DNA from: CBDCVA01 sp965222935 [NCBI: Candidatus Latescibacterota bacterium]
Lineage (GTDB): Bacteria; Latescibacterota; CBDCVA01
Reading direction: 5' to 3'
Length of the DNA stretch: 64,000 nt
NCBI GenBank assembly: GCA_965222935.1
Contig: CBDCVA010000002.1
Location: 1,550,001-1,614,000, forward strand
The notes under the pieces were generated by a model. It was not told the DNA's origin and ran no database searches. It was given only the letters and a program-made list of their open reading frames with translations. The position numbers were made by a program, and so were the translations under genes. Position 1 is the stretch's first letter. The number at the start of each line of letters is the position of its first letter. Shown here in pieces: positions 7,395 to 57,223 of the stretch.

Positions 7395-7862
7395 CCCGCG
7401 CGCCCAGAGAAGATAGCGAACGCGAGGCCCGCTGTCAGTGAAACCCCAGGGCGCGGGGGCCGGGGGCGGGGTCTCTCTTGTTCCCCCTCCCTGCTTGTGC
7501 CAGCGGAGCTTCCGCCGGGGAGGGGGTCAGGGGGTGGGGTTCACTTAGTGTCAACTTTCCAGCACTGACTTTTGCCCCGAAAATGACGATCTTCCCACTC
7601 GCGCCCGAAGAGAGCAGCCACCGATGACCCAGACGAACCGGACGCCGATTCAACAGCCCCTCGCGCCCCCCCTTGCCGACGGGCCGACGGAAGCCCAGCC
7701 CGCAGACGCCGCGATCTTGTTCCTCTCCCCCCACACGTGGCAGAGCCCCATCCTCTTTCTCCCCTCCCTGCATGTGCCAGCGGAGCTTCCGCTGCCAGCG
7801 GAGCTTCCGCCGGGGAGGGGCCGGGGGTGGGGTCTCTCCGACGGTAAGGAGCGATACGCTTA
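7395..7862 (+). repeat. Composite repeat block A upstream of the SpoIID-like gene
   Basis: The 630 bases between the ferritin gene and the next gene contain no convincing gene. They hold an inverted copy of the GCGAACGCGAGGCCCGC tail (7405-7440), a G-rich stretch (7454-7472), a hairpin/G4 copy (7482-7540), a GTGTCA...CACTGAC hairpin (7546-7567) and a roughly 160-bp module. The module includes a mini-frame beginning MTQTNRTPIQ at 7624. A second hairpin/G4 copy (7760-7833) with a duplicated CAGCGGAGCTTCCGC unit closes the block, about 30 bases before the coding region. The 7562-7833 portion recurs at 9680-9982 and 11706-11972. Confidence 0.85.
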
Positions 7863-7866
7863 GTTG

Positions 7867-9531: not shown

Positions 9532-9599
9532 GCCATGCCGCGAAGCTCATCGAAGTTTGAGTGCCGGTTCGGCCTCTGGACGTGGACGCTGGTCCTTGC

Positions 9600-9985
9600 T
9601 CTTCTCCCCTCCCTGCTTGTGCCAGCGGAGCTTCCGCCGGGGAGGGGCCGGGGGTGGGGTTTTAGTGCCACCTTTCCAGCACTGACTTCCACCCCGATAA
9701 TGACGATCTTCCCACTCGCGCCCAAAGAGAGCAACCACCGATGACACAGATGAACTGGACGCCGATTCAGGAGCCCCTCGCGCGCCCCCTTGCCGACGGG
9801 CCGACGGAAGCCCAGCCCGCAGACGCCGCGATCTCGCCCCCGTCCCCTACACGTAACCCCCTCCACGTTCTGGCTGTCCTTGCTCTTCTCCCCCGCCAGC
9901 GGAGCTTCCGCTCCCTGTATGTGCCAGCGGAGCTTCCGCTGCCAGCGGAGCTTCCGCCGGGGAGGGGGTCAGGGGGTGGGGTTCG
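9600..9985 (+). repeat. Composite repeat block B upstream of the symporter
   Basis: This is a second, nearly complete copy of the block at 7482-7833. It has a hairpin/G4 copy (9605-9660), a GTGCCA...CACTGAC hairpin, the module with a mini-frame (MTQMNWTPIQ at 9741), and a final hairpin/G4 copy (9889-9982) with the CAGCGGAGCTTCCGC unit present three times. The core coding GPTEAQPADAAI is base-for-base identical to blocks A and C. It ends 18 bases before the symporter ATG, so it forms most of that gene's leader. Confidence 0.85.
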
Positions 9986-10000
9986 CATTAAGGAGCGCGC

Positions 10001-11713: not shown

Positions 11714-11975
11714 CGATCTTCCCACTCGCGCCCGAAGAGAGCAGCCACCGATGACTCAGACGAACTGGACGCCGATTCAAGAGCCCCTCGTGCCCCCCCT
11801 TGCCGACGGGCCGACGGAAGCCCAGCCCGCAGACGCCGCGATCTCGCTCCCGTCCCCTACACGTAACCCCCTCCACGTTCTGGCTGTCCTTGCTCTTCTC
11901 CCCCGCCAGCGGAGCTTCCGCTCCCTGTATGTGCCAGCGGAGCTTCCGCCGGGGAGGGGCCGGGGGTGGGGTTTC
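11700..11975 (+). repeat. Composite repeat block C upstream of murQ
   Basis: This is the third copy of the block. It begins inside the symporter's last codons (ETPPQK is repeat-encoded), carries the module with a mini-frame (MTQTNWTPIQ at 11751), and ends with a hairpin/G4 copy (11900-11972) about 24 bases before the murQ start. Compared with block B it lacks one CAGCGGAGCTTCCGC unit. The three blocks therefore precede three consecutive genes of one pathway. Confidence 0.85.
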
Positions 11976-11995
11976 TTTAGGCCAGGGGTGAACCC

Positions 11996-21619: not shown

Positions 21620-22069
21620 TTACGCGCTCTCGACCTCGATCTCCCGAGCTACGGCCTCCTCGGCCTTGGGAACGGTGATCGTGAGCACGCCGTCGCGCGC
21701 GGCCGCCTTGACCCGATCAGCGCGCACACCGACGGGCAGTGAGAAGGAGCGCCGGAAGCGGCCTTGGCTTCGCTCCACGCGATGGTAGTTCCGCCCCTTC
21801 CGCTCGCGCTCCTCCTTCTTCTCGCCCTCGACGGTCAGAACGTTGTCGGCGAGGGTGATCTTCACGTCCTCGGCCTTGAGACCGGGCAGCTCGGCGGAAA
21901 TCGTGTAGTGGCCGCTCTCTTCGAGCAGGTCCACCGCCGGGCACAGCGTCACATCCTGCCCGGCCTCTCGCCCGACCTCGGGCCGGTCGAAGAAGCCCTC
22001 GAACAGGCGGTTCACCTCATCGCGGTGCGACGGGCGTCCGCCGAACGGTTGATAGCGCACGAGAACCAT
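21620..22069 (-). CDS. Hsp20 family small heat-shock protein
   Basis: The 149-residue protein has an alpha-crystallin domain: PAVDLLEESGHYTISAELPGLKAEDVKI, LTVEGEKKEERERKG and GVLTITVPKAE. It is an ATP-independent holdase that binds unfolded proteins in the cytoplasm. It is a tandem paralog of the gene 73 bases upstream, and the shared N-terminus (VRYQPFGG versus MRYHPFGG) points to a local duplication. GGAGGT precedes the ATG. Confidence 0.95.
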   Translation of the reverse strand: MVLVRYQPFGGRPSHRDEVNRLFEGFFDRPEVGREAGQDVTLCPAVDLLEESGHYTISAELPGLKAEDVKITLADNVLTVEGEKKEERERKGRNYHRVERSQGRFRRSFSLPVGVRADRVKAAARDGVLTITVPKAEEAVAREIEVESA

Positions 22070-22142: not shown

Positions 22143-22574
22143 CTACGCGGTCTCGACGGCGATCTCCTTGACCCTGGCCTCCTCGGCCTTGGGAACGGTG
22201 ATCGTGAGCACGCCATCGCGCGCCGCCCCCTTGACCTGATCGGCCCGCACACCGCGAGGCAGTGCGAACGAGCGGCGGAAGCGACCGTGGGTGCGCTCCA
22301 GTCGACGATAGTCGCCGCGCTCGCGCTCTTCCTTTTTCTCACCCTCGATGGTCAGGACATCCCGCTCCAGGGTGATCTTGACGTCCTCCGTGCTCAGGCC
22401 CGGCAGCTCCACGGTGAACGTGTAGCGGTCTTCGTCTTCCGTCACGTCCACCGGGGGATGAAGCGCGAGCTCCCGCCCGGTCCGTGAGCGGCCGCAGGCG
22501 TCCCCGAACGGGCGGTCAAACTCGTCGCGACGCGACAGGAGCCCGCCGAACGGGTGATAGCGCATGAGAGCCAT
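22143..22574 (-). CDS. Hsp20 family small heat-shock protein
   Basis: The 143-residue protein has the alpha-crystallin domain: PPVDVTEDEDRYTFTVELPGLSTEDVKI, LTIEGEKKEERERGD, FALPRGVRADQVKG and GVLTITVPKAEE. AAGGAGGT lies 7 bases before the ATG at 22574, which fixes the start against an in-frame upstream codon. It is the first gene of the tandem pair and lies about 45 bases downstream of a predicted sigma-54 start point. Confidence 0.95.
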   Translation of the reverse strand: MALMRYHPFGGLLSRRDEFDRPFGDACGRSRTGRELALHPPVDVTEDEDRYTFTVELPGLSTEDVKITLERDVLTIEGEKKEERERGDYRRLERTHGRFRRSFALPRGVRADQVKGAARDGVLTITVPKAEEARVKEIAVETA

Positions 22575-25244: not shown

Positions 25245-26195
25245 CTAGAACCCGCCGGAGAGGGAGACGCGGTGCATGAGGCCCAGTTCGGCGAAGGAGC
25301 TGACGGCGTAGTCCACATCGACGACGCCGACGCCGAACCCTACCCCGCCCGATAGGCCGGGCAACTGGTCCGAATCGAGGCCGTCGAGCGCACCGTCGAA
25401 GCCGCCGCGCAGCAACAATCCCCCGGGCACGGCGACCTCAACGCCGGCGCTGCCGAAGACATCGTTGTCGTTGGGGGCTACCAGGTCGGCGGCGACCGTG
25501 AAGGGGGCCTCGCGCAGGCGAAGCGCAACGCCAAGCCGCAAGCTGACGGGCAGCGCGTCCTCGAACGTCTCGGTGAAGCCGCTGCGGACGAAGCCGAGGT
25601 TCGTCACGGCAGCACCGAAGACCAGCGCGTCGAAGGCTCGAATCGCGGGGCTCACGTCCCAGGTGACGCCGAGATCAAGGGCGTAGGCGTCGGAGGTGAA
25701 ATCGTCGATCGAGGAGACGATGGCCTTGAGCGTCGCACCGAGGGCAACGTCGTCCCTGACGGACCTCGCGCCAACGAGGTGGACGGCGACATCCTGGGGC
25801 GTGAAGGTGCCGAGGGTCTGGCCCTCTTCGTCAGTGCGAAGCAGCTCGCCGTGGGAAAGATACTTGACGCCGAGGGCGAACGCACCGCGCCCCCCCACAG
25901 GCGCCCCGAAGGCAGCGAAACCCAGTTGTCCGCCCACGACCAGGTTGGCGAAGGTGGCGGCCGCGGTCGGGAGACGCACCTCCGCCAGGCTCGCCGGGTT
26001 AACCGTCAACGCGGTCAGGCCGCCGGTCATAGCCGTGTAGGCCTCGCCCAGGGCGCTGGCCCGCGCGGATGTGCCAATCTTGAGGAAGGCGAAGCCCGTG
26101 GTGCCCACGTTCTCGCCCGCCTGGGCCGCAGGCAACGCCCCCCACAGCACCGCCAGAGCCAGGACGCCGACCCACGCAGGACAACGGAGCCTCAC
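25245..26195 (-). CDS. PorV/PorQ-family outer-membrane protein
   Basis: The 316-residue protein has a signal peptide ending AAQAGE. The mature start GFAFLKIGTSARASALGEAYTAMTGGLTALTVNPASLA is the hallmark of PorV/PorQ, FadL-like barrels of the FCB group, some of which serve type IX secretion. The remainder alternates beta-strands and ends LMHRVSLSGGF with a C-terminal Phe. Translation starts at a GTG that overlaps the gatB stop (GTGA), with GGAGG upstream, so it is coupled to gatB. No type IX secretion genes are seen here. Confidence 0.85.
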   Translation of the reverse strand: MRLRCPAWVGVLALAVLWGALPAAQAGENVGTTGFAFLKIGTSARASALGEAYTAMTGGLTALTVNPASLAEVRLPTAAATFANLVVGGQLGFAAFGAPVGGRGAFALGVKYLSHGELLRTDEEGQTLGTFTPQDVAVHLVGARSVRDDVALGATLKAIVSSIDDFTSDAYALDLGVTWDVSPAIRAFDALVFGAAVTNLGFVRSGFTETFEDALPVSLRLGVALRLREAPFTVAADLVAPNDNDVFGSAGVEVAVPGGLLLRGGFDGALDGLDSDQLPGLSGGVGFGVGVVDVDYAVSSFAELGLMHRVSLSGGF

Positions 26196-27649
26196 GAGGG
26201 CGCCTCCACCTCGTCGAGCGCCTTGCGGAAGACCTCGTTGGCGAGGCGCGGATCGGCCTTGCCCCTGGTCTCCCGCATGAGTTGGCCCACGAACCAGCCC
26301 AGAAGCTTGGTGCGGCCTCCCTTGTAGCGAGCGACTTCGTCGGGCGAATGCTCGATGATAGCACGGGCGGCAGCTTCGAGGCTGCCCGTATCCGTGATCT
26401 GGACCAGGCCCTCCGCCTCGACGATCGTTCGGGGGGCTTCGCCGCTTTCGAGCATTCGGTCGAAGACGGTCCTGGCGAGGGTGCCTGAGATGGTGCCCTC
26501 GTCGATCAAACCCAGAAGCTCCGCCAAGTGCGCGGGCGAGAGGCCCAGTTGATCCACGGAGATATGGCGCTCGTTGAGGGCGCGGAGCACGTCGCCCATG
26601 ACCCAGTTGGCGGCGGCCTTGGACTGGGCGCCAGCGGCGACGGTCGCCTCGAAGAAATCGGCCAGGCCGCGCTCGGCGGTGAGGACGCCGGCATCGTAGC
26701 CGGAGAGGGTGTACTCGCTCTCGAAGCGGGCGCGTCGTTGGGCCGGGAGCTCGGGCAGGTCGGCGCGGATCGCCTCGACCCAGTCCGGATCGGGCCGCAG
26801 AGGCACCAGGTCGGGCTCGGGAAAGTAGCGGTAGTCGTGGGCAAATTCCTTCGAGCGCATGGGGAGAGTCCGCATCTGCGCCGTGTCCCACAGGAAGGTC
26901 TCCTGGACGACGGACTGGCCCGCCTCGATCAGGCGAATCTGGCGGGTGATCTCGGCGTCGATGGCCTGCCGGGCGAAGCGGAAGGAGTTGAGGTTCTTGA
27001 TCTCGGTCTTGGTGCCCAGTTCCCCGTCGCCGACCGGGCGCACGGAGATATTGGGCTCGCAGCGAAGGCTGCCCTCCTCCATCTTGCCGTCGGAGACGCC
27101 CAAGTAGACCAGAATCTGATGGACCGCTGTCATGTAAGCGTAAGCCTCCTCGGGGCCGCACAAGTCGGGCTCGGTTACGATCTCGAGCAGCGGCGTGCCG
27201 CAACGGTTGGCGTCAAACAGTGACCTGTCGGGGGTCGCACCGCCCTCTTCACCGTGGATGAGCTTGCCCGTATCCTCCTCGATGTGGACGCGGACCAATC
27301 GGACGCGCTTGATCTCGCCGTTCACCTCGATGTCCACGTGACCCCCGAGGGCCAGCGGGCTCTCGTACTGGCTGACCTGGTAGTTCTTGGGGAGATCGGG
27401 ATACCAATAGTTCTTGCGGGCGAACTGGGCGAAGAGTTGAACCTCGCTCCCGAACGCCAGCGCCGCGCGCAGCGCCAGGTGGATCGCCCCTCGGTTGATG
27501 ACGGGCAGGACGCCCGGATAGCCCAGGCAGACGGGGCACGCCTGGGCGTTCGGCTCCCCGCCGAAGCGGTTCGGGCAACCGCAGAACATCTTGGACTGCG
27601 TCTTGACCTGCGCGTGAATCTCAAAGCCGATGACGGGTTCGTAGGGCAT
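26192..27649 (-). CDS. gatB: Asp/Glu-tRNA(Asn/Gln) amidotransferase subunit B
   Basis: The 485-residue protein is full-length GatB. It begins YEPVIGFEIHAQVKTQSKMFCGCPN and contains the conserved CPVCLGYPGVLPVIN, YWYPDLPKNYQVSQY, the PLLEIVTEPDL region and a C-terminal YqeY-like tail domain. It phosphorylates Glu- or Asp-tRNA and, with GatA, amidates it to make Gln- or Asn-tRNA. It would normally follow gatA directly. Here 3.1 kb of nuclease and methylase genes separate them. Its first 23 codons also survive as a copy at 29581-29651. Confidence 0.97.
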   Translation of the reverse strand: MPYEPVIGFEIHAQVKTQSKMFCGCPNRFGGEPNAQACPVCLGYPGVLPVINRGAIHLALRAALAFGSEVQLFAQFARKNYWYPDLPKNYQVSQYESPLALGGHVDIEVNGEIKRVRLVRVHIEEDTGKLIHGEEGGATPDRSLFDANRCGTPLLEIVTEPDLCGPEEAYAYMTAVHQILVYLGVSDGKMEEGSLRCEPNISVRPVGDGELGTKTEIKNLNSFRFARQAIDAEITRQIRLIEAGQSVVQETFLWDTAQMRTLPMRSKEFAHDYRYFPEPDLVPLRPDPDWVEAIRADLPELPAQRRARFESEYTLSGYDAGVLTAERGLADFFEATVAAGAQSKAAANWVMGDVLRALNERHISVDQLGLSPAHLAELLGLIDEGTISGTLARTVFDRMLESGEAPRTIVEAEGLVQITDTGSLEAAARAIIEHSPDEVARYKGGRTKLLGWFVGQLMRETRGKADPRLANEVFRKALDEVEAPS

Positions 27650-27673
27650 GGGGCTCTTGGAGAGTAGTTTTAT

Positions 27674-28636
27674 TTAGAACAGCACCATCTGTTCTGGATA
27701 GCCTTGCCCGGTCTTACTCCGTGAAGAAGGTGGGCTAGCACTTCCTCCCGTGCCGTCTGGTGTCGCGAAACCGGGTTTGATAAGTAATGCTTCATACATC
27801 TCGTTGCGAAGGTTCTCTCTTGATCCCACATGGTAGAAGTGTCGGACGATCCGCATCTCAGACTCTGACCAACAGCGCTCGATGTGTTCGTTCTTTCTGT
27901 ACCTGTTCTGAAGCCACATCGAAACAGCATAGCCGCAAGCCAGGCTTCCGGTCATCATGGAGAGTTTTTCGGCCTCCGCTTTGTCCCAGGAGACATGGTA
28001 GTCTGTGTGGCGACCGATGTAAGGCGGATCAATGTACACAAAGTCCTCAGGCTGGGCAACATCGAGAATTTGGTGCCATGGGGCGACACGAAACTGCCAC
28101 CTACGACCGCGCATCCGCCGTGCTATCCAACCCACCTGATTGACTATCTTAGTGATATAAGCTTTGGAAAAGCGGTTTGGCTTGTGACCAAAGGGGACGT
28201 TAAACTTGCCTTGGCGATTGAAGCGCATAAGCCCATTAAAACATGAACGATTTAGAAAAAGGAAGTCGAGCGATGATCCCTTGTCGTTAAAGCGTTCTCG
28301 CACTTCATAATAATAATCCGCGCCGTACGTTTGCAGTTTCCTGCCTTCCTGTTCCAGAAATCTCCGCACAGTGGTTTGACTGATCTCACCTCGGTATATA
28401 TCTTGGTAAAAGCCGATGATGTGCTCGTTGGTGTCGGCGAGAATGGCGTGCTCAGGGGCGAGGTTGAAGGCAACAACCCCCGAGCCTAAGAAGGGCTCTA
28501 TCCACCTAGCGGTGCCATCTGCGACCCATTCGATATTCCTGAGGATGAATGGAACCAGCTTTGTCTTAATGCCCTGGCATTTGATGGGCGGTACACCGAC
28601 GTGATTCACCAGAAGGGGTAGCTTAGTCATCGTCAA
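27674..28636 (-). CDS. Adenine-N6 DNA methyltransferase (Dam/D12 class), partner of the EcoRV-type nuclease
   Basis: The 320-residue protein has the D12-class layout: GIKTKLVPFILRNI near 22-35, the SAM-binding EPFLGSGVVAFN at 47-58, and the catalytic DPPY at 203-206 in FVYIDPPYIGRH. M.EcoRV is a member of this class, and the ATGA overlap with the EcoRV-like endonuclease upstream makes this its protective partner. It would methylate adenine in the shared site, by analogy GATATC. The gene is visibly richer in A+T than gatA and gatB, consistent with transfer. Confidence 0.92.
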   Translation of the reverse strand: MTMTKLPLLVNHVGVPPIKCQGIKTKLVPFILRNIEWVADGTARWIEPFLGSGVVAFNLAPEHAILADTNEHIIGFYQDIYRGEISQTTVRRFLEQEGRKLQTYGADYYYEVRERFNDKGSSLDFLFLNRSCFNGLMRFNRQGKFNVPFGHKPNRFSKAYITKIVNQVGWIARRMRGRRWQFRVAPWHQILDVAQPEDFVYIDPPYIGRHTDYHVSWDKAEAEKLSMMTGSLACGYAVSMWLQNRYRKNEHIERCWSESEMRIVRHFYHVGSRENLRNEMYEALLIKPGFATPDGTGGSASPPSSRSKTGQGYPEQMVLF

Positions 28637-29481
28637 CTCGGTTTAGGACCACTCTTGTACTCGAAATATGTTTGAAGATTCCTATACGGAGGCTTCTCTA
28701 AACCCACAACCCTCGCGTCCGACAAGGTCATATAGTACGTCCAATAATCGTCGAACACTTCCTCGCCTAGCTGTGCGAAAGGCCCATTTCCAATGAGTAG
28801 TTGGGATAGCTGACGTATCGCACCAATGTTTTTGGTGTTGCCGCTTCCTGGCTGATCGTTCGCTATACGGTACTTGGGTTGTGCGAAGAACTGTAAATTC
28901 TCCACGACCGATGGCACTTGCTCAAGCGAACCGACAGTATGGGTCGTGTTTATAGACGTAGTGACTCCTCCCAGTTCTTCTACACTATAGATTTTCAGCT
29001 CATCCGCTTTTAATTTGGCTCGGTCGTACACAACCCCCAACACGAAATGACCGGAATAATCTCCATACGGGAAGGTCGTCGTGCGTGCAGTAGTACGCTC
29101 ACGGAAGTAACCGGTAAAGGCTCCCAGGGTCATCGTGTTGACTCTCTCAGAGCCAGTGCGATAGGTGCTCTTGAGGTCAACGGCAAACTTGTAGCCATCG
29201 CTGCTGAGAAACGATATATCAGGATAGTGGTTCTGATGACGCGCCAAGACTAAATCCATGCTATGCTTATCAGCAAAATCCTTGAAATTCGGAAGGAGCA
29301 TGAGCTCAATTAGCTTAGAGACTACCTTGGTATCCGCCGAGATAGTGAACACTCGTCTGAAAACATCTATGAAGCCTCTAACTATCCAGTCCCCGCTAGA
29401 AGTAGAGATACGCTTCCTAAACGTCGCCGCTTCTTCTTGCAGGAGAGAGAGAAACTCGCCAGCTGCTTCTTTGGAGGTCAT
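28633..29481 (-). CDS. EcoRV-type type II restriction endonuclease
   Basis: The 282-residue protein aligns by eye with EcoRV along its length. SADTKVVSKLIEL corresponds to the SDTKVLST region, HQNHYPDIS to QQNHYPDFT, FAVDLKSTY to IAIDIKTTY, TLGAFTGYF to TLGGYTSFI, and GSGNTKNIGAI to GSGNTTNIGSI. The catalytic PD...DxK is conserved as Asp88, Asp102 and Lys104 (EcoRV Asp74, Asp90, Lys92). The recognition loop equivalent (GSGNT) is kept, so the expected target is GATATC or a close variant, cut blunt (inference). It is about 37 residues longer than EcoRV. The stop overlaps the methylase start. Confidence 0.93.
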   Translation of the reverse strand: MTSKEAAGEFLSLLQEEAATFRKRISTSSGDWIVRGFIDVFRRVFTISADTKVVSKLIELMLLPNFKDFADKHSMDLVLARHQNHYPDISFLSSDGYKFAVDLKSTYRTGSERVNTMTLGAFTGYFRERTTARTTTFPYGDYSGHFVLGVVYDRAKLKADELKIYSVEELGGVTTSINTTHTVGSLEQVPSVVENLQFFAQPKYRIANDQPGSGNTKNIGAIRQLSQLLIGNGPFAQLGEEVFDDYWTYYMTLSDARVVGLEKPPYRNLQTYFEYKSGPKPS

Positions 29482-29540
29482 ATACTCCCTCGCAATCTCC
29501 CGTCAGAGCATCTGGCACCCATAGAGACCTGCTTTCCCAG

Positions 29541-29651
29541 CCCCTCAATCGCCCGTGCGACGCGGAGGACGGTCGGCTCCCCGCAGAACCTCTTGGACTG
29601 CGTCTTGGCCTGCGCGTGAATCTCAAAGCCGATGACGGGTTCGTAGGGCAT
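29541..29651 (-). pseudogene. Hybrid remnant: start of gatB joined to end of gatA
   Basis: On the minus strand, 29651-29581 repeats the first 23 codons of gatB with two or three base changes (MPYEPVIGFEIHAQAKTQSK). It then switches at a shared TCGGCTCCCCG to about 40 bases matching the 3' end of gatA (EPTVLRVARAIEGL versus EPTVLRAARAIEVL). The order gatB-start then gatA-end is the junction expected inside a tandem gatA-gatB duplication after an internal deletion. It lies between the 356-aa nuclease gene and the EcoRV-type gene and has no function as it stands. Confidence 0.85.
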
Positions 29652-29653
29652 GG

Positions 29654-30720
29654 TCATGGGTTTTGGAAGCTGTCCTTCACCAGACCGAGTTGGCGGATGC
29701 TCTCGGTGGCCTGCGAGAGCCACTCGTGGACGCGAAGGACTTCGGCCGCGTCCCAGTAAGCCAAGCCTGACACGAATTTCTCCGGAAGCCCTTGTGTTTC
29801 CTTCTGAATTTGCCCAAGCTGCTCAGTGTCCGAGACCGCGACCACCTTCTGAACAGTAGCATTGCCCGTCGCCTTCTGCAGGTTCAGGATCAAGCTATCT
29901 ACTGAGCCGCCTTTCTGCACCTCGAACACGTAGGTCACGACGCCGAGGTTGCCGATATCCGCACGCCAGACCACGTCAACGCGAGCACCCTGTGCGATGA
30001 ACTTTTCGGTCTCGGTTGTGAAACCCAGAAACGAGCCTATTTGCTCCAGTTTATCTCGAATCTCGTTGTGCTCCCACCCTTCCATCAACGGAGATGTTCC
30101 AGTGTCCGAGCTCTGCGACACCGCCCACAGGAAACGATCGGTTCCCAGGAGGTCCATTTCCTTGAGTTCCGCGTCCCGCAACTCTTGGGCGATGACGGTA
30201 ACAATCCCGTTAAAGCGGTCGTATTCATCGGCGGAGAGCTGGTACTTCTTGAGCGGGAGATCATCTCCGAAACCAAGAAGCCCTAATGCCTTCCGAGGAG
30301 TTTCGTTCCATATCCCGAAAGAGCTAGGTGAGCGGTAGCACAGCATCTCGGTCACCGAAGCTGGGCCAAAGCCCTTAACGTGCTTGATGAAGCGATCATA
30401 CCGCTGACTTGCTGGAACGCCGTCGTAAAACAGACGGACGAACTCACATCGCACCCGCTCTAGGCCATTAGAGAGGATCTTCTGCACAGGATATTCTTTG
30501 CTGCTCCACATCTGACTCGCCCAGAGCTTTTCGACAATCTCTCGCAAAAGAGCCTCGTCCAATTGCTCAAGACCCTCTCGGTCCAGGGTCTGGAAAAACT
30601 GCACGCGCTCGCGACAGGTTTTGATGTGGTCTTGCCCCTGTGATGTCTTCTGGTATGCCCTGAACGCTTTAACGTGCTTGCGGATAACCTCCCGCTGCTC
30701 CGGCGTGAGAACGATGTCGG

Positions 30721-30724
<4 letters not shown>
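29654..30724 (-). CDS. Predicted nuclease with HhH-like and PD-(D/E)XK-like domains
   Basis: The 356-residue protein is not one I can name. The N-terminal half is helical, with a helix-hairpin-helix-like stretch at about 112-150 (FIKHVKGFGPASVTEMLCYRS, then FGIWNETPRKALGLLGF). Near the C-terminus, ARVDVVW (Asp250) is followed by YVFEVQKGG (Glu268, Gln270, Lys271), which fits a PD-(D/E)XK nuclease core of the E-x-Q/K kind. Its ATG overlaps the gatA stop (ATGA), so it is coupled to gatA translation. It probably acts in DNA restriction or defence, judged from the fold and its EcoRV-type neighbour. Confidence 0.75.
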
Positions 30725-32265
<1,541 letters not shown>

Positions 32266-45328: not shown

Positions 45329-45412
45329 ATGCCGCCGCTCGTAGGCGCTGCGTTGGTAATAGCCCGGACCTTTGCTGCCATCGTCGGGAAGGAATCGCTC
45401 AGTGGCCCATAG
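45329..45412 (+). CDS. 27-codon leader-like ORF before the adenine methylase
   Basis: ACGGAGGATGAGTC lies directly before an ATG that encodes PPLVGAALVIARTFAAIVGK and a short tail, ending within the start region of the methylase gene. The strong ribosome-binding site suggests it is translated. It may couple translation into the methylase or be the stub of a phage protein. Confidence 0.35.
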   Translation: MPPLVGAALVIARTFAAIVGKESLSGP

Positions 45413-46286
45413 GCGCAGGCGCAAGGTTCCACCTATCTATTTGGATAACGGCGAAATGGGGAGATTTCCCGCTGCCCGCCCTCGGCGGCGCCGTCGTCTC
45501 ATCGCGTTTGGCTGGTATGGTGGAAAATTCAGTCACCTGGAGTGGCTTCTTCCTCTGTTACCGGAGGCGCACCATTACTGTGAGCCGTTTGCTGGATCGG
45601 CGGCTGTCTTGCTCAATCGTGAGCCGGCCCCCGTGGAGACGTACAATGATATGGACGGCGAGATGGTGAACTTCTTTCGGGTGCTCCGCGACCATTCGGA
45701 GGAGCTTGCTCGGACCCTTCGGCTGACGCCGTTCTCGCGCGAAGAGTTCTATTTTGCCATCCACGGCGATTTGAACGGGCTTACCTCGCTGGAACGGGCG
45801 AGGCGTTTCTGCATCCGGGCGCGCCAGGCTCGCACCGGCTTGGCCCAGACGGCCACGCTCGGGCGCTGGGCCAACTGCAAGAAGACCAGCCGCGCGGGCA
45901 TGTCCGGCGTCGTCTCTCGGTGGTTGGGCGGTATCGAGGCGCTCCCGCACGTTGCGGATCGGCTTTTACGCGTCCAGATCGAGAACCGGCCGGCAACGGA
46001 CGTGATCCGCGTCTATGACAGCCCCGAGACCTTGTTCTATTGCGATCCGCCTTATGTTCACGAGACGCGGGGTGATGACAAGGCCTACGGCTTTGAAATG
46101 GACGAGGAGGAGCACGGTGAGCTGGCCGACACACTGCACCACTGCGAGGGCAGGATGGCTCTCTCGGGTTATCGGTGTGACCTGATGGACGAGTTGTACG
46201 GAGACTGGCGTCGCTTTGATGCCCCGGAGAAACTTTGCCATTCTATCAAAAAGAACCGCAGGGAATGCCTCTGGATGAACTACTAG
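45402..46286 (+). CDS. Dam-family adenine-N6 DNA methyltransferase
   Basis: The roughly 294-residue protein has the D12-class layout: motif X FGWYGGKFSHLEWLLPLLP, motif I CEPFAGSAAVLLNR, and motif IV FYCDPPYVHETRG. This subtype, with the WANCKKTSRAGMSG middle segment, is common in phages and often methylates without a partner nuclease. The N-terminus is unusually Arg-rich; the GTG at 45402 (behind GGGAAGGAA) is the best start. No restriction gene is next to it. It lies between small phage-like ORFs and the AAA+ cassette. Confidence 0.88.
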   Translation: MAHRRRRKVPPIYLDNGEMGRFPAARPRRRRRLIAFGWYGGKFSHLEWLLPLLPEAHHYCEPFAGSAAVLLNREPAPVETYNDMDGEMVNFFRVLRDHSEELARTLRLTPFSREEFYFAIHGDLNGLTSLERARRFCIRARQARTGLAQTATLGRWANCKKTSRAGMSGVVSRWLGGIEALPHVADRLLRVQIENRPATDVIRVYDSPETLFYCDPPYVHETRGDDKAYGFEMDEEEHGELADTLHHCEGRMALSGYRCDLMDELYGDWRRFDAPEKLCHSIKKNRRECLWMNY

Positions 46287-46296
46287 GCATCACAGT

Positions 46297-46428
46297 TTGG
46301 GCACTATAGGCCCAAAGGGTCGGAGCGTCTTCACGGACAAGGTTCTGTCCTTGTTGGGGGATAGAGAGATGCCAGCCGCGCTCAAGCTGGCATGGAACGA
46401 GCGAGTCAAGGCGCTGCTGGAATCGTAG
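46297..46428 (+). CDS. Possible small ORF or 3' remnant before the AAA+ gene
   Basis: One frame reads TIGPKGRSVFTDKVLSLLGD, then PAALKLAWNERVKALLES and stops at 46426-46428. It has a protein-like pattern but only a TTG start and no family. The stop codon overlaps the first base of the 45-bp direct repeat, so this was probably the original upstream neighbour of the phytanoyl-CoA dioxygenase gene. Confidence 0.3.
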   Translation: MGTIGPKGRSVFTDKVLSLLGDREMPAALKLAWNERVKALLES

Positions 46429-46472
46429 GGGCGGAGGCGTACGATGAAACTCACCGCTGAGCAGGTCGAGCA
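46428..46472 (+). repeat. 45-bp direct repeat, left copy (duplicated start of the phytanoyl-CoA dioxygenase gene)
   Basis: This segment is identical, base for base, to 47755-47799. It contains the ribosome-binding site (GGGGCGGAGG), the ATG and the first 9-10 codons of the dioxygenase gene. Beyond it the two copies still share five of seven bases. It provides the start of the AAA+ ATPase gene. Confidence 0.97.
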
Positions 46473-47688
46473 ACTCAACAAGAGGGAGAAGCTGGCTGAG
46501 GTATTCACGCCTGCCAGCCCAGTCAGTCAACTCGAGCTCTTCGCTGGGCGAATCCCACAAGTTTTTCAGATTGCAGATGCAGTGAATCAGCAGGGCCAGC
46601 ACGTAGCTATTTACGGAGAGCGAGGTGTAGGTAAAACCTCTATGGCGAACATCCTGGGCGCTTTCCTCGGTCTCCGTGGTGGGTTCCGTCCCTTTACGGT
46701 AGTGAAGATAAACTGCGGAAGTTACGATAAGTTCGCAAGCCTCTGGAAAAAAGTCTTTGAGCAGATAGCCATCGAGGTCAAGCAGCCACTTGCAGGGTTC
46801 TCTCGTGCTCCGGGAACCACGGTAGCAACCTTGGCAAATGAACTTCCCGACAAACTGTCTCCGGATGATGTGAGGAGAGGGCTCGGGATGCTAGCTGGGC
46901 CAAATGTAGTGATTTTGGATGAGTTCGACCGAATTGAATTTTCTCAAACACGCAGGATGATGGCGGACACGATAAAAGCGGTCTCAGACTACGCAGTTTC
47001 AACAACCATCATTGTCGTGGGTGTAGCCGACACGGTAGATCAGCTTATAGAGAATCATGCTTCAATAGGCAGGGTGCTGGTGCAAGTCTACATTCCTCGG
47101 ATGTCCCAGAGCGAGTTAATCGAAATTGTCGATAAGCGCCTGAAAGAAGTTGGAATGGACATTGAGTCTGATGCGAAGGAGTATGTTGCCCAGTTGTGTC
47201 AAGGGCTTCCGCACTATGCTCACGTACTCGGTCAAATCTCGGCTCTAACAGCGCTTCATAACCAGCGTTTGACTGTGAGTCGAGATGACGTTGAGGCGGC
47301 GATTAGCGAGGCACTCCAGCGAGTGCAGGCAAGCATCTCGAGCCTGTATCACACAGCTATATCCAGTACGAGGAAGGAGAACTTGTACAGGCAGGTTCTG
47401 CTGGCATGCGCCCTAGCGGATGTCGACAACCTGAGCTTCTTTCCTCCGTCTAATGTGCGTGGTCCTATGTCACAAATAATGCGAAAGCCCTATGGCATAG
47501 CAGCTTTCTCTAGGCATCTTCATGCATTGTGTGAGCGCGAACGAGGCGAGGTTCTGCAAAAGAGAGGCTCGCCAAGGAAGTTTCTGTTCAGGTTCCGTGA
47601 TCCGCTAATGCAGCCGTACGTTGTCATGCGTGGATTGACGGACGGAATGATAGCTGAAGATCTGCTAAGACAACTTGGTAGGGTATAA
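46444..47688 (+). CDS. Orc1/Cdc6-like AAA+ ATPase that begins with captured dioxygenase codons
   Basis: The 414-residue protein has Walker A YGERGVGKTSMAN (58-70) and Walker B VVILDEFDRIEF (155-166). Sensor-like segments TTIIVVGVADTV and IGRVLVQVYIPRMSQSELIEIV follow, then a C-terminal winged-helix-like region ending RKFLFRFRDPLMQPYVVMRG. This fits the Orc1/Cdc6-STAND-like group of defence-associated ATPases. The first ten residues (MKLTAEQVEQ) are those of the neighbouring phytanoyl-CoA dioxygenase, read from the 45-bp repeat. A native start may have lain near KREKLAEVF. The gene is richer in A+T than its neighbours, a sign of transfer. Confidence 0.85.
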   Translation: MKLTAEQVEQLNKREKLAEVFTPASPVSQLELFAGRIPQVFQIADAVNQQGQHVAIYGERGVGKTSMANILGAFLGLRGGFRPFTVVKINCGSYDKFASLWKKVFEQIAIEVKQPLAGFSRAPGTTVATLANELPDKLSPDDVRRGLGMLAGPNVVILDEFDRIEFSQTRRMMADTIKAVSDYAVSTTIIVVGVADTVDQLIENHASIGRVLVQVYIPRMSQSELIEIVDKRLKEVGMDIESDAKEYVAQLCQGLPHYAHVLGQISALTALHNQRLTVSRDDVEAAISEALQRVQASISSLYHTAISSTRKENLYRQVLLACALADVDNLSFFPPSNVRGPMSQIMRKPYGIAAFSRHLHALCERERGEVLQKRGSPRKFLFRFRDPLMQPYVVMRGLTDGMIAEDLLRQLGRV

Positions 47689-47754
47689 GCGAACTCGGTG
47701 TGGGGATAATCTGTAGGAGGCGTTCGCAACATCAGGGAGACCACAGTGGCTTCT

Positions 47755-47799
47755 GGGGCGGAGGCGTACGATGAAACTCACCGCTGAGCAGGTCGAGCA
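47755..47799 (+). repeat. 45-bp direct repeat, right copy
   Basis: This is the resident copy of the repeat, covering the ribosome-binding site and first codons of the intact phytanoyl-CoA dioxygenase gene. Together with the left copy it brackets exactly the AAA+ gene and about 65 bases after it. Confidence 0.97.
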
Positions 47800-48673
47800 G
47801 TTCAACGAGGACGGGTACCTGGTGGTCGAGGGAGCGCTGGAAGAGGGCGACCTGGCTCCGGTCATCGAGGAGTACGAGGCGCACATCGACCGCCGGGCAC
47901 AGAAGGCTTTCGGCGAGGGGAAGATCGGCCAACTTTACGAGGACGAGCCCTTCGAACGACGGCTGGCGTGCCTCTGCCGGGAGAACAGCGAGGTCCATGG
48001 CGGGCTGGACATCATGCACCTGCGCGGGGAGGCGTCGTTCGAGTTCTTGGGTAACGACCATCTAATGGACATCGTGGAGAGCATCGTTGGGCCGGAGATC
48101 ATCTGCAGTCCGATCCAGCACATCCGCCCGAAGCTGCCCGACGGCTTGATCCCCGACGGCAGCGACAGGCACGTGGTGCCCTGGCACCAGGATGCCGGCG
48201 TGACCTGGGCTGAGGCCGACCCCCACTTCATCCTGACGGTCTGGCTCCCGATGGTGGAGGCCACTGCCGAGAACGGTTGTCTGCAGATCATACCGCGCCA
48301 GCACGGCAAGGGCCTGGTGCGGCATGAGAGCCGCGCGGGCGTGGGCACCGTCATCGCCGAGGACGCGATGCCGGACGCCGAGCCGATGGTCCTTCCCATG
48401 CGGAAAGGCAGCTTGCTCCTGATGCACAAGGAGATTCCGCACCGCTCCACGCCGAACGTCACCGATGCCGTCCGCTGGAGCATGGACCTGCGCTACCAGA
48501 AGACCGGCACGCCCACCGGGAGGCCCTTCTACCCCGATTTCGTGGTGCGCAGCCGGTCGGACCCCGCATCGGTCCTGACCGCCCACGATGAGTGGTGTCG
48601 GATGTGGATCGAAGCCATAGAAGGGGCCAAGGCCGCGGAGGCGCAGCCGCACCGCTGGCAAGCCGTGTCTTAG
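47771..48673 (+). CDS. Phytanoyl-CoA dioxygenase family protein
   Basis: The 300-residue protein is a non-heme Fe(II)/2-oxoglutarate oxygenase of the PhyH family. The iron-binding HxD is His139-Asp141 in VVPWHQDAGVTW, and the distal His224 lies in MHKEIPHRSTPN, followed by the 2-oxoglutarate-binding region WSMDLRYQKTG. It hydroxylates an unactivated carbon of a small substrate that is not identifiable. A paralog lies at 55.1 kb. The family is often expanded in Latescibacterota- and Poribacteria-like genomes. It precedes gyrA by 41 bases. Confidence 0.92.
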   Translation: MKLTAEQVEQFNEDGYLVVEGALEEGDLAPVIEEYEAHIDRRAQKAFGEGKIGQLYEDEPFERRLACLCRENSEVHGGLDIMHLRGEASFEFLGNDHLMDIVESIVGPEIICSPIQHIRPKLPDGLIPDGSDRHVVPWHQDAGVTWAEADPHFILTVWLPMVEATAENGCLQIIPRQHGKGLVRHESRAGVGTVIAEDAMPDAEPMVLPMRKGSLLLMHKEIPHRSTPNVTDAVRWSMDLRYQKTGTPTGRPFYPDFVVRSRSDPASVLTAHDEWCRMWIEAIEGAKAAEAQPHRWQAVS

Positions 48674-51360: not shown

Positions 51361-52629
51361 ATGAGGACCAGTGTGGAGATTCGTCTCTCTCGTAACGTTC
51401 AATTCATATATGAGAACGCCCTGGCGTGTACAGAGTTTGAAGTTGGTTTTGGCGCGGAGAATTTAAGGACGATCCCATCCGATCCTTGGCTGATTCATGC
51501 AGATGTTGATGGCAACCCATCTTCCATTCTTGAGCGCTCTGCCTATGCTGGCGAGGTAAATGGTGACACCGCCGTTTACTCTCAACTGATTCGCCCGGCT
51601 TACCAGGGCGGACGCTTCAATCAGACGCGATCCGTCAATCAATATCTCACGCACTGGATTTATCCTTACAAAGGCAAATTCCACCCTCAGATGATTCGTG
51701 CACTCTTGAACATAATGGGTGCCCGACCAGGGTGGACAGTTCTTGACCCCTTCATGGGCAGTGGCACGACGGCTCTCGAGTGCCAAATGCTGGGCATAGA
51801 CTGCATAGGTGTAGACGTTTCGCCGCTATGTGCTTTGCTTACGAAGGTCAAGACTAATTCATGGCAGCATTGGCCGGAGATTGAAGCGCTCCTCGATCCA
51901 GCCCTCAAGAATAAAGCACTTGATCCTAATGATTCAACGCTTCAGAAGGAAAAAAATGAAACCGTGTGTGATTTCTTAAAGATCGGTGAGATGGTTGCCC
52001 TTAGTGATGCCTCGAATAGGAAGAGAGATGCGAAGACGTGGTTTCCGAGGAGGCTAAAAAATATGCTGGAATCCGCCCGGGCTATGGATGATGTAAGACA
52101 CCGCTTTGGCCTTAGATTTGGTGAGGTCCGCTCATACGTAGGAGATGTCAAGTTCCTTGATAAACATGGTATAGAGAGTGCTTCTATAGACGGCATCGTT
52201 ACATCACCTCCATATTCTCTTGCACTGGATTACGTACACAATGATAAGCACGCCCTAGAGGCCATGGGCGAAGATCTAGGAAAGATTCGCGAGCGTTGTA
52301 TAGGCTTGAGGGGGCGTGGCGCTGTCGAGAGGCTGCATAATTACAACTCTGATATGAGACAGGCTCTTGCAGAGCTCGCCAGAGTTCTCAAGCCCGGTGG
52401 CAGGGCAGTAGTTATTATCGGTGACGCGACTGTCAAAGGCGAGGAAGTTACAACGACAAAGGAGATGGTGCGTTGGGCAAGGGAGGCGGGGCTGGTTCTT
52501 GAGAGGACTCTGCCCAAGATAGTCTATGGTTTATACAACGTGATTGCTGACGAGAAGATATTGTTCTTCCGCCGCGATCCGCTCTCGGGAGGGAAGTCGA
52601 ATGTACGAAGTGATGTTGTCAAGCGATGA
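51361..52629 (+). CDS. SPPY-type amino DNA methyltransferase (N4-cytosine or N6-adenine)
   Basis: The 422-residue protein has SAM-binding motif I VLDPFMGSGTTALECQMLGIDCIGVDVSPL at about 122-150 and catalytic motif IV ITSPPY-like TSPPYSLALDYVHND near 281-295, with about 150 residues between them. SPPY is typical of m4C methylases but is also found in some m6A enzymes. It ends with a Rossmann strand GGRAVVIIGDATVKG. No restriction enzyme is adjacent; an 80-aa protein overlaps its end. The gene is visibly A+T-richer than gyrA before it, which suggests transfer. Confidence 0.85.
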   Translation: MRTSVEIRLSRNVQFIYENALACTEFEVGFGAENLRTIPSDPWLIHADVDGNPSSILERSAYAGEVNGDTAVYSQLIRPAYQGGRFNQTRSVNQYLTHWIYPYKGKFHPQMIRALLNIMGARPGWTVLDPFMGSGTTALECQMLGIDCIGVDVSPLCALLTKVKTNSWQHWPEIEALLDPALKNKALDPNDSTLQKEKNETVCDFLKIGEMVALSDASNRKRDAKTWFPRRLKNMLESARAMDDVRHRFGLRFGEVRSYVGDVKFLDKHGIESASIDGIVTSPPYSLALDYVHNDKHALEAMGEDLGKIRERCIGLRGRGAVERLHNYNSDMRQALAELARVLKPGGRAVVIIGDATVKGEEVTTTKEMVRWAREAGLVLERTLPKIVYGLYNVIADEKILFFRRDPLSGGKSNVRSDVVKR

Positions 52630-55114: not shown

Positions 55115-56038
55115 TCAGGCGGGCACGCCGCCGGGCCAGCGGTACCATCGGGCGCCTCGGCTGGAGACCTTGGCGAGCTTCCAGGCCGTCAGCCACTCGG
55201 CGTGATCGGTAATCACCAACTCGGGGCTCTCCTGGCTTCGCACGAGCATTCCGGGCAGGTGCGGTCGGCCGTTGGCCTTTCGGGCGTCGTTCCAGCGCAG
55301 GTCCATGCTCCAGCGCAGCGTATCGGCTCGGTTGGGCTGGCTTCCGTGGGGCGTGCGGCAGTGCATCATGAGGAGATCACCGCGCTTGACGGGGGCCTTG
55401 ACGGGATCTCCGGCGGGCTTCTCGTCTTCGGCGATCTCCCAGTTGCCGATACCGGCGGGATGGATGTGTTTGCGGAGCGGCTCGTTATGGCATCGAGGGT
55501 AAACCATGAGCGTGCCGTTGGTCTCGTTCGTGTCCACGAGGGGAATCCAGGTCGTCACGACCAGCGTGTCGTCGGCCTCGGACAAAAGCACGCCGGCGTC
55601 CTGATGGAGCGGGGTCCTGTGCGCCCACTCGCTCGAGGAAAGAGCGCCTTCGTAGTCGTCCGAGGCGGGCAGCTTGGGCCGAATGTGTTGACAGGGGTTG
55701 CAGTAGATCTCGGGACCGATGAGGGCCTCGACCAGATCGAGCAGCCGATCGCTGTGCAGAAACTCGAAGATGGCCCTCCTCAGATTGTTCGGAAAGTTCA
55801 TGGCGAAGGCGACACTGCCATCCACCTTGGCAAGCGGGATGAGCCGCTTCTCGAAAGGTAGCTCGGCGTAGTCGGAATCAAGTTTGCCCTCGGCGAAGAG
55901 ACGCTTGGCCGCGTCGTCCACAATCCGTTCCAGTTCCTCTTGAACGGGGTCGAGGTCTTCGGGACGCAGCGCGTCCTCGACGTGCAGATAGCCCTCGGTA
56001 TGGAAGGTCTCGATCTGCTCGCGGGTGAGTCCGGACAT
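55115..56038 (-). CDS. Phytanoyl-CoA dioxygenase family protein
   Basis: The 307-residue protein is a paralog of the dioxygenase at 47.8 kb, sharing the TREQIETFHTEGYLHVEDAL type start. It has the iron-binding HxD in RTPLHQDAGVLLSEAD, a distal His in MHCRTPHGSQPN and the 2-oxoglutarate region RWSMDLRWNDARKANGRP. It uses Fe(II) and 2-oxoglutarate; the substrate is unknown. CCAGGAGATC precedes the ATG at 56038; a long frame upstream is not used. Confidence 0.92.
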   Translation of the reverse strand: MSGLTREQIETFHTEGYLHVEDALRPEDLDPVQEELERIVDDAAKRLFAEGKLDSDYAELPFEKRLIPLAKVDGSVAFAMNFPNNLRRAIFEFLHSDRLLDLVEALIGPEIYCNPCQHIRPKLPASDDYEGALSSSEWAHRTPLHQDAGVLLSEADDTLVVTTWIPLVDTNETNGTLMVYPRCHNEPLRKHIHPAGIGNWEIAEDEKPAGDPVKAPVKRGDLLMMHCRTPHGSQPNRADTLRWSMDLRWNDARKANGRPHLPGMLVRSQESPELVITDHAEWLTAWKLAKVSSRGARWYRWPGGVPA

Positions 56039-56168
56039 GACCGATCTCCTGGCGATAGAAGCCCTCTTTATGGCTCTGCTCTCGAAGGCCCTAAGATAGC
56101 CTCCAAGCTCTTGCGTGGCAAACGGTCTTAACGTAGGGGTCCGGGATACAGGGCAGGCGCCTGGCGCG

Positions 56169-56260
56169 ACCCCATTCCCTGAAGAGAGCCGGATAGTCTC
56201 GAATCCCTTGAGAGGCAAGAGCCGCGCGGCGGGGTTGACAGTGCCTATGCGTGCAGGCAT
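56169..56260 (+). repeat. ~92-bp direct repeat, left copy, flanking the NotI-type system
   Basis: This segment matches 58278-58368 at roughly 85% of positions, including an identical 22-base block around TCGAATCCCTTGAGAGGCA. It contains TTGACA (56235-56240) with a degenerate -10 (CATCTT) 17 bases later. The whole 309-base gap between the dioxygenase and methylase starts holds only this element. Confidence 0.85.
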
Positions 56261-56347
56261 CTTGTTCCGTGTGGGAGCGGGGCAGCGCCTGAGGAACTCG
56301 CTGGCGGGCTGATAGATCGGTTGGGCTATGGCAAGGACGCCGTGATC

Positions 56348-57223
56348 ATGGGAATGACGATGAACAAATTCTCCACGGCCGCTTACGATCCTCTGGAGCA
56401 GAAGAAGATCGTAAACGTGGCGACGGTCCCGCAACGTAGCCCTTTCCGTTATCCCGGCGGGAAAACGTGGCTGGTCCCCGAGATACGAGCTTGGCTTCGG
56501 TCGCTGCTGCACAAGCCCTGTGTTCTCGTTGAGCCCTTTACGGGTGGTGGCATAGCTTCGCTCACTGCTGTTTGCGAGAACTTTGTGCAGCGGGCGGTCA
56601 TGGTTGAGAAAGACGAACCTATGGCTGTAGCGTGGGAAACGATCCTCCAGGATGGGCGGTGGTTGGCTGAGCGCATCCGCGCGTTTGAGCTGACCCCAGG
56701 AAACGTGAGAAGCACTTTGTCTTCCACACCCGAAAACCCACGGGAGAGGGGCTTTCAAACGCTTTTGCGTAATCGTGTGCAACGCGGCGGCATCATGGCT
56801 CCCGGAGCGAGCTTGATGAAAACGGGGGAGAACGGGAAAGGGCTTAGATCTCGCTGGTACCCTGACACGCTTGCAAAGCGAATCCTCGCCATCTACCAGT
56901 ACCGGCACAGGATCACCTTCGTTGCCGGAGACGCATTCGGTGTGTTGCCGCGATACAGTTCCGATGAGTCAGTAGCGTTCTTTGTTGATCCGCCGTACAC
57001 GGCGGGTGGGAAGCGCGCAGGGAGCCGACTTTACGCCCACAGCCAAGTGGACCATGAAAAGCTCTTTGCGCTCATGAGGCGCTTTAAGGGACCGATCTTG
57101 ATGACATACGATGAGTCCGAAGAGGTGCAGCGGCTTGCTGACAGATACGGCTTCTCAAGAAGAAGGGTTCGGATGATGAACGCGCATCACGCAAAGCAGT
57201 ACGAGCTTTTGATCACCCGTTAG
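56348..57223 (+). CDS. D12-class adenine-N6 DNA methyltransferase next to the NotI-like nuclease
   Basis: The roughly 291-residue protein has motif X FRYPGGKTWLVPEIRAWL, motif I VEPFTGGGIASLTAV and motif IV AFFVDPPYTAGGKRAG, the D12 (Dam-like) order. It methylates adenine. The ATG at 56348 has only a weak ribosome-binding site; a TTG at 56321 is possible. It converges on the NotI-family endonuclease gene, with an 11-base overlap of their 3' ends, so it is probably the protective enzyme of that system. Confidence 0.9.
   Translation: MGMTMNKFSTAAYDPLEQKKIVNVATVPQRSPFRYPGGKTWLVPEIRAWLRSLLHKPCVLVEPFTGGGIASLTAVCENFVQRAVMVEKDEPMAVAWETILQDGRWLAERIRAFELTPGNVRSTLSSTPENPRERGFQTLLRNRVQRGGIMAPGASLMKTGENGKGLRSRWYPDTLAKRILAIYQYRHRITFVAGDAFGVLPRYSSDESVAFFVDPPYTAGGKRAGSRLYAHSQVDHEKLFALMRRFKGPILMTYDESEEVQRLADRYGFSRRRVRMMNAHHAKQYELLITR

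What the first reader, a model, noticed from the sequence alone, without database searches (positions are those of the whole stretch)
46428..47799. AAA+ ATPase gene inserted with a perfect 45-bp duplication that supplies its own start
The ribosome-binding site, ATG and first codons of the phytanoyl-CoA dioxygenase gene occur twice, identically, 1327 bases apart. The left copy runs in frame into an Orc1/Cdc6-like AAA+ ATPase, so the newcomer is translated from host initiation signals and carries ten host residues, while the host gene stays intact. Perfect identity suggests a recent event. This is an elegant way for a cassette to enter a genome expressed and without damage.
Basis: seen in the sequence. 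Interest (0 to 1): 0.85.

Follow-up and report, generated by a model that had tools for sequence, protein, structure and literature searches.

The report
Foreign gene borrowing its neighbour's start
A gene acquired from outside sits in front of a resident enzyme gene behind an exact second copy of that enzyme's start signal, which is the only usual start the newcomer has; similar scars at a restriction system in the same stretch and in an unrelated genome suggest that defence genes can slip in by recombining at the start of a neighbour.

Summary
A 45-nt exact direct repeat (46428-46472, 47755-47799) carries the ribosome-binding site, ATG and first 29 coding bases of the PhyH gene. The left copy is fused in frame to a low-GC Orc1/Cdc6-like ATPase gene and is its only ATG/GTG/TTG before codon 47. 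None of 20 homologue loci with a readable N-terminus begins this way.

It is not unique. Between gatA and gatB an EcoRV-type restriction-modification pair lies behind a 73-nt copy of gatB's start joined to a 48-nt copy of gatA's end. An unrelated genome (L054) shows the same permuted order, with fragments resembling another species' genes.

Best reading: additive entry of defence-type cargo by recombination at the downstream gene's 5' end. It works like 'insertion with long target duplication'; the permuted arms at two loci hint at a circular or tandem donor.

Limits: no general enrichment (8 of 100 methyltransferase loci, 2 of 40 controls; scar in 1 of 21 EcoRV loci); the permuted arms are absent at PhyH itself; no host genome, relatives or reads, so empty site and artefact are untested. 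A defence role of the ATPase is inferred from phage and plasmid homologues.

The parts
46428..46472 (+). Left copy of the 45-nt repeat: RBS, ATG and 29 coding nt of the PhyH gene, fused in frame to the ATPase
47755..47799 (+). Right copy of the repeat, at the start of the intact PhyH gene
46444..47688 (+). Orc1/Cdc6-like AAA+ ATPase gene, 414 codons, GC 51%; its start is supplied by the repeat
   Evidence: Pfam AAA_22 1.6e-10; TIGR02928 5.7e-8, below cut-off; Foldseek top-ranked hits Cdc6/Orc1; GC
47689..47754 (+). 66 nt between the ATPase stop and the right repeat copy; no similarity above shuffles to the left flank
47771..48673 (+). Phytanoyl-CoA dioxygenase (PhyH) gene, intact, just upstream of gyrA
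   Evidence: PhyH 2.1e-22; the paralogue inside 55115-56908 shares the N-terminal LT-EQ motif
45372..46286 (+). D12-class DNA adenine methyltransferase gene upstream of the left copy (other mobile-type cargo)
29581..29653 (-). Copy of the start of gatB (73 nt, 97%; first 45 nt exact), fragment only
29539..29586 (-). Copy of the 3' end of gatA (48 nt, 90%) directly after the gatB fragment; the two alignments overlap by 6 nt
28633..29481 (-). EcoRV-type restriction endonuclease gene
   Evidence: Endonuc-EcoRV 7e-93; REase_II
27674..28636 (-). D12 methyltransferase gene paired with the EcoRV-type endonuclease
29654..30724 (-). Further inserted gene of unknown family (356 aa), starting in the gatA stop codon (ATGA)
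26192..27649 (-). gatB, intact
30721..32265 (-). gatA, intact

Best explanation
A foreign segment of 1282 nt between the repeat copies, holding one Orc1/Cdc6-like ATPase gene, was added upstream of PhyH between gyrB and gyrA. It entered by recombination at the 5' end of the downstream gene, which left two copies of that gene's start. The left copy supplies the ATPase's ribosome-binding site, ATG and first ten residues; the right copy keeps PhyH intact. Shown: the duplication, the in-frame fusion, the absence of any other early ATG/GTG/TTG, the foreign composition, and the same kind of duplication at gatAB and in L054. Inferred: that incoming DNA recombined with the resident 5' end. In the gat locus and L054 the order is upstream gene - downstream start - upstream end - cargo - downstream gene (at gat with one more inserted gene after gatA), the order expected if the donor was a circle or tandem repeat of a segment holding the cargo and pieces of both neighbours; at PhyH the corresponding join would lie inside the ATPase's own first codons. 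Inferred role of the ATPase: a lysogen-type, probably anti-phage accessory protein.
For: Exact 45-nt repeat and only early start. Second case in the window with an unrelated cargo. Third case in an unrelated genome (L054): start of an ABC-transporter gene, 102 nt at 82% with the first 45 exact, joined to a 32-nt copy of the upstream dipeptidase gene's end (score 42, 0 of 300 shuffles reach it) before an EcoRV-type pair. In L054, leaving out a 2-nt indel, 16 differences lie in the last 55 of 100 columns and none in the first 45 (p 2e-5 if placed uniformly); 9 of 16 are at third codon positions, 6 of 13 changed codons are synonymous, and the dipeptidase piece reads ARQLKAEERNKIQ-stop, as from a foreign orthologue. 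Crossover in the identical start fits that mosaic. Of 5 differences in 45 nt of the gatA-end copy, 3 are at third positions. Homologous ATPases lie on phages and plasmids: Kevin1 gp30, 39% identical, Cashline gp34, 35%, a phage-like Salmonella plasmid, 25%, 13 IMG/VR loci, 15 records of the plasmid collection, 2 of them above 40% identity. Passages of PMC9122126 name the gpA-gpQ interval of P2-like phages as an anti-phage hotspot.
Against: No relative with an empty site or with the donor arrangement could be fetched. At PhyH there is no copy of the upstream gene's end (score reached by 251 of 300 shuffles), so the permuted-arms signature is missing at the very locus asked about. Survey without enrichment: candidate start duplications in 8 of 100 D12-methyltransferase loci, 2 of 40 control windows, 0 of 21 ATPase loci; the three methyltransferase candidates read in detail were not this architecture. 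Among 21 EcoRV-family loci only L054 has the scar. In gatB's copy both differences change an amino acid, which looks like drift rather than donor origin.
Confidence: 0.6

Rival explanations
1. Transposition-like insertion of the cargo with a long target duplication: a staggered cut of about 45 nt at the PhyH start is filled in on both sides of a linear cassette, with no homology involved.
For: The flanks tested outside the repeat share nothing above shuffles; published reports describe restriction-modification units inserting with long and variable target duplications, of the order of 100 bp (passages read in PMC3874152, and PMC3031569).
Against: The ATPase is the only ORF above 120 aa between the copies and no inverted repeat of 16 nt or more sits at the ends. 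In L054 and gat the inserted segment begins with the continuation of the very gene whose start is duplicated, then the end of the upstream gene, which blind insertion would not give.
Confidence: 0.18
2. Homology-facilitated illegitimate recombination of a linear donor: one side exchanged by homology in PhyH, the other joined at a few matching bases inside the ATPase start. The left copy is then all recipient.
For: The alignments of the gatB-start and gatA-end copies overlap by 6 nt at their join, with one mismatch on the gatA side. The process is described in transformable bacteria and was proposed for stepwise stacking of immunity genes in Vibrio cholerae (passages of PMC5361080).
Against: It predicts that left and right copies are alike beyond the crossover; in L054 they are identical first and diverge later.
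Confidence: 0.15
3. Relic of a tandem duplication of PhyH: two PhyH genes stood in a row and the ATPase replaced most of the first.
For: A second PhyH gene, 43% identical, lies about 6.4 kb downstream on the other strand, so the family is multicopy here.
Against: Nothing of PhyH beyond about 55 nt remains in the left copy, and similarity stops at once upstream of the ribosome-binding site.
Confidence: 0.05
4. Assembly artefact: a chimeric join placed the PhyH start before an unrelated ATPase gene.
For: No reads were available.
Against: The join is in frame and falls in the variable leader of the ATPase family; comparable joins recur at a second locus and in a second genome.
Confidence: 0.05

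Closest known systems
Insertion with long target duplication of restriction-modification genes (Nobusato 2000; Furuta 2010; papers not held, seen only as cited in PMC3874152 and PMC3031569)
   Same: Foreign defence-type genes flanked by direct repeats of tens to about 100 nt of host sequence.
   Different: The main cargo here is a lone ATPase; the repeat is a gene start and is used as the cargo's own start; at two loci the inserted segment carries pieces of both neighbours in permuted order. Whether the original reports contain such cases I could not check.
Homology-facilitated illegitimate recombination / cassette stacking in V. cholerae type VI clusters (PMC5361080, passages)
   Same: Additive entry beside an anchor of conserved sequence, older genes pushed aside, no integrase known.
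   Different: There the older effector gene is displaced and the anchor is upstream; here the downstream gene stays whole and its start is doubled.
Merodiploids made by transformation in Streptococcus pneumoniae (PMC3784515, passages)
   Same: Alternative pairing of repeated donor sequence gives tandem duplications with new joints.
   Different: Those duplications span 100 kb and more and rest on long repeats; here they are 45-102 nt.
Accessory genes in the gpA-gpQ hotspot of P2-like phages (PMC9122126, passages)
   Same: One distant homologue of the ATPase (25% identical) lies between a replication endonuclease/Tum pair and a portal gene on a phage-like Salmonella plasmid.
   Different: The window gene is chromosomal, between gyrB and gyrA; no activity has been tested.

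Membership tests
Insertion with long target duplication | Direct repeats of tens to about 100 nt flank the inserted genes | tested here: met
   45 nt exact (55 nt at 94.5%) at PhyH; 73 nt at gatB; 102 nt in L054
Insertion with long target duplication | Cargo is a restriction-modification unit | tested here: not met
   At PhyH the cargo between the copies is an ATPase only; met at gatAB and L054
[quoted passage not shown]
   No genome or relative held for the window
Homology-facilitated illegitimate recombination | Homologous exchange on one side, short-match join on the other | tested here: inconclusive
   6-nt overlap at the gat joint; the L054 mosaic fits poorly
Transposon or IS | Transposase gene or terminal inverted repeats between the copies | tested here: not met
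   The ATPase is the only ORF above 120 aa there; no inverted repeat of 16 nt or more at the ends. ORFs of 73-75 aa there were not scanned
Integrase-driven island | Integrase gene next to the attachment site | tested here: not met
   Six ORFs between gyrB and PhyH were scanned with Pfam (44040, 44333, 45061, 45322, 45372, 46444): a methyltransferase, the ATPase, one weak sub-cut-off hit and three without hit. Other short ORFs were not scanned
Integron cassette | attC site | not tested
   No attC search was run
orc1/cdc6 family TIGR02928 | Score above the curated cut-off | tested here: not met
   32 bits against a cut-off of 181.3
Orc1/Cdc6-like fold | Best-ranked structural matches are Orc1/Cdc6 proteins | tested here: met
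   Model pLDDT 76; 1fnn, 7jgr, 1w5t rank first, E 7e-12 to 9e-11, but TM only 0.47-0.49 and RuvB and clamp loaders follow closely
Anti-phage defence protein | Protects against phage | not testable with these tools
   Only context: phage and plasmid homologues; PADLOC hits are marginal

The most novel reading that the evidence does not exclude
Small defence units travel without any recombinase of their own as circles or tandem copies of a segment that holds the cargo and short ends of the two housekeeping genes beside it (downstream start joined to upstream end). In a new genome they recombine with the same downstream gene's start, so they enter beside an intact, expressed gene and leave a doubled gene start as a readable scar. 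Sometimes, as here, the scar becomes the cargo's own translation start.
Probability: 0.25. Interest if true: 0.75.

Novelty: new variant of a known kind. Interest (0 to 1): 0.5.

Why it matters
As far as I know, how restriction-modification and other small defence genes move without transposases is still open. The permuted neighbour fragments seen in two unrelated genomes offer a concrete, checkable route (recombination through ends of the neighbouring genes), and doubled gene starts give a simple sequence signature to search for. The PhyH case also shows a direct way for a foreign gene to become translated from host signals in one step.

Tried and rejected
Whole-genome work on the host: no genome held, so other copies of the repeat, the ATPase or an empty site in relatives could not be sought.

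ATPase as the mobile agent: rejected, because 0 of 21 homologue loci gave a gene-start duplication. The 21 include one contig twice (L003, L043) and three pairs with the same leader (L041/L042, L045/L046, L049/L050); L053 lacks the N-terminus. Other direct repeats in L005, L044 and L052 do not flank the ATPase gene.

General enrichment of start duplications at methyltransferase loci: not found (8 of 100 against 2 of 40). The 100 loci were picked by hand from the capped list; left out were mostly places within about 6 kb of a contig start, partners of EcoRV loci already fetched, neighbours of fetched loci and the lower-scoring end of the list. The 40 controls are windows 40 kb to 1 Mb away on contigs of those loci. 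L083, L085 and L093 were read and dismissed; L075, L109, L116, L127, L136 and the two control hits were not read. EcoRV-family loci: one scar in 21 (L054-L060 and L204-L217); several of the latter lie on short contigs, so flanks are partly missing.

Third inserted gene, 51361-52629 after gyrA: no convincing duplicated flank. An upstream-gene fragment after the PhyH copy: none. Structure of the 356-aa cargo: pLDDT 38, useless. Prophage defence papers PMC6426596 and PMC6426606 (passages): their systems are described as RexAB-like, and the passages name no AAA+ ATPase as a component.

One search used a script with a loop error (it missed the known L054 case); its counts were discarded and replaced.

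Full report
What is there. The 45-nt repeat is real and exact (46428-46472, 47755-47799) and far above chance (longest repeat in 60 Markov versions of the window 20 nt). It holds 16 nt of leader with a GGAGG site, the ATG and 29 coding nt of the PhyH gene. The left copy opens a 414-codon ATPase ORF. The frame is closed by a TAG at 46426, and there is no further ATG, GTG or TTG before codon 47, which lies beyond the conserved F-x-P (residues 21-23) and FAGR (33-36) motifs of the family. So without the copy the ATPase would lack a usual start codon in front of its conserved part. The ATPase has GC3 54% against 87-89% for PhyH, gyrA and gyrB.

Whose start it is. PhyH's 43% identical paralogue in the window shares the N-terminal LT-EQ-E-F pattern. 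Of 21 ATPase homologue loci, 20 have a readable N-terminus, in 16 distinct forms, and none begins MKLTAEQVEQ. The segment is native to PhyH. Homologues have roughly 12-25 variable residues before F-x-P (starts judged by eye) and this one has 20; the fusion falls in that stretch, and the model shows one helix over residues 5-20.

What the ATPase is. Pfam AAA_22 and related models, TIGR02928 below cut-off, Foldseek best ranks Cdc6/Orc1 and the archaeal ATPase 2fna, with TM scores of only about 0.5, PHROG 6841 of unknown function. It is patchy: strong hits (E < 1e-80) in 3 of 396 genomes sampled from the phylum of G001, with weaker hits in 13 more, and 8 of 395 in that of G002 at E <= 1e-10 with the alignment as query. 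It occurs in 13 IMG/VR loci, 15 records of the plasmid collection, of which 2 exceed 40% identity and the rest are 23-29%, and 3 phage records of two phages. In Kevin1 it lies between a HicB-like gene and a hypothetical gene beside holin and endolysins, near integrase and repressors; in Cashline between tail genes and the integrase region; on a phage-like Salmonella plasmid (25% identical) between replication endonuclease/Tum and portal, an interval that PMC9122126 describes as an anti-phage hotspot in P2-like phages (passages). A defence role is an inference from place.

A second scar in the window. Looking for all long exact repeats brought up the start of gatB, again 45 nt exact, at 27607-27651 and 29609-29653. 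The order along the transcript is gatA, an unknown 356-aa gene starting in gatA's stop codon, a 73-nt fragment of gatB's start (97%), a 48-nt fragment of gatA's end (90%), an EcoRV-type endonuclease gene, its D12 methyltransferase gene, then intact gatB. The three inserted genes have GC 48-56% against 66-69% for gatB and gatA.

A third scar elsewhere. Of 8 EcoRV-family hits in 396 genomes of the G001 phylum sample, 7 were fetched with flanks first and the eighth later. L054 has the same order: dipeptidase gene, 102-nt copy of the start of an ABC-transporter gene (82%, first 45 exact), 32-nt copy of the dipeptidase gene's end, EcoRV-type pair, intact ABC-transporter gene (the two host genes are named from my reading of their translations, not from a family search). 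After a 2-nt indel the copy still reads as a related protein, with 9 of 16 differences at third codon positions, and the dipeptidase piece reads to a stop as an orthologous C-terminus would. These fragments look like pieces of another species' genes that arrived with the cargo. All 16 differences lie after position 45 (p 2e-5 under uniform placement), as if the crossover happened in the identical stretch.

Mechanism. A donor in which the downstream start is already joined to the upstream end (a circle or tandem repeat of the segment around the cargo) and which recombines with the resident downstream start gives the observed order and mosaic. A linear donor with one illegitimate end gives the same order but not the L054 mosaic. 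Insertion by staggered cut gives the repeats but not the neighbour fragments. At PhyH only the repeat is present and no upstream fragment, so the three mechanisms are least separable there; I carry over the reading from the other two loci, which is the weakest step.

Results against. The start-duplication scan gave candidates in 8 of 100 D12-methyltransferase loci, 2 of 40 controls, 2 of 7 EcoRV loci (one of them, L056, not flanking the pair) and 0 of 21 ATPase loci; three of the eight were read and were low-complexity or unrelated repeats. A further 14 EcoRV loci gave none. So the scar is uncommon, and two in one window may reflect this organism or luck. In gatB's copy both differences change an amino acid. 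That all three exact stretches are 45 nt long is unexplained; in gat the next difference is a single base, so I treat it as coincidence.

Known ground. Long and variable target duplications for restriction-modification units are published (Nobusato 2000, Furuta 2010; not held, seen cited in PMC3874152 and PMC3031569). PMC3031569 also notes that units flanked by direct repeats are expected to amplify in tandem. In the listings and the passages read I saw no description of the permuted neighbour fragments or of a duplicated start used by the cargo; the library is partial and most listed papers were not opened, so this is not proof of absence.

Verdict. New variant of a known kind, interest 0.5.

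Noticed in passing
window 51361-52629: Low-GC (50%) N6/N4 DNA methyltransferase gene directly after gyrA, another likely acquisition, without a convincing duplicated flank.
   Followed up: partly
window 46279-46428: Open frame ending ...LAWNERVKALLES-stop just before the left repeat copy, perhaps the 3' remnant of a gene partner of the D12 methyltransferase.
   Followed up: no
window 47715-47730: GGAGGCGTTCG in the 66 nt after the ATPase resembles the PhyH leader GGAGGCGTACG; could be a trace of another gene start or chance.
   Followed up: no
window 7480-12000: Repeated blocks up to 101 nt exact (9839/11849 and others), many with the motif CCAGCGGAGCTTCCGC, around successive long ORFs.
   Followed up: no
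window 21653-21691 and 22176-22214: 39-nt exact direct repeat 523 nt apart, perhaps within neighbouring paralogues; not identified.
   Followed up: no
window 29654-30724: 356-aa gene starting in gatA's stop codon, no Pfam, NCBIfam, PADLOC or PHROG match; homologues at 31-39% identity on four plasmid-collection records, archaea among them.
   Followed up: partly
L054 4806-4850; window 27607-27651 and 46428-46472: The exact part of all three start duplications is 45 nt long.
   Followed up: partly
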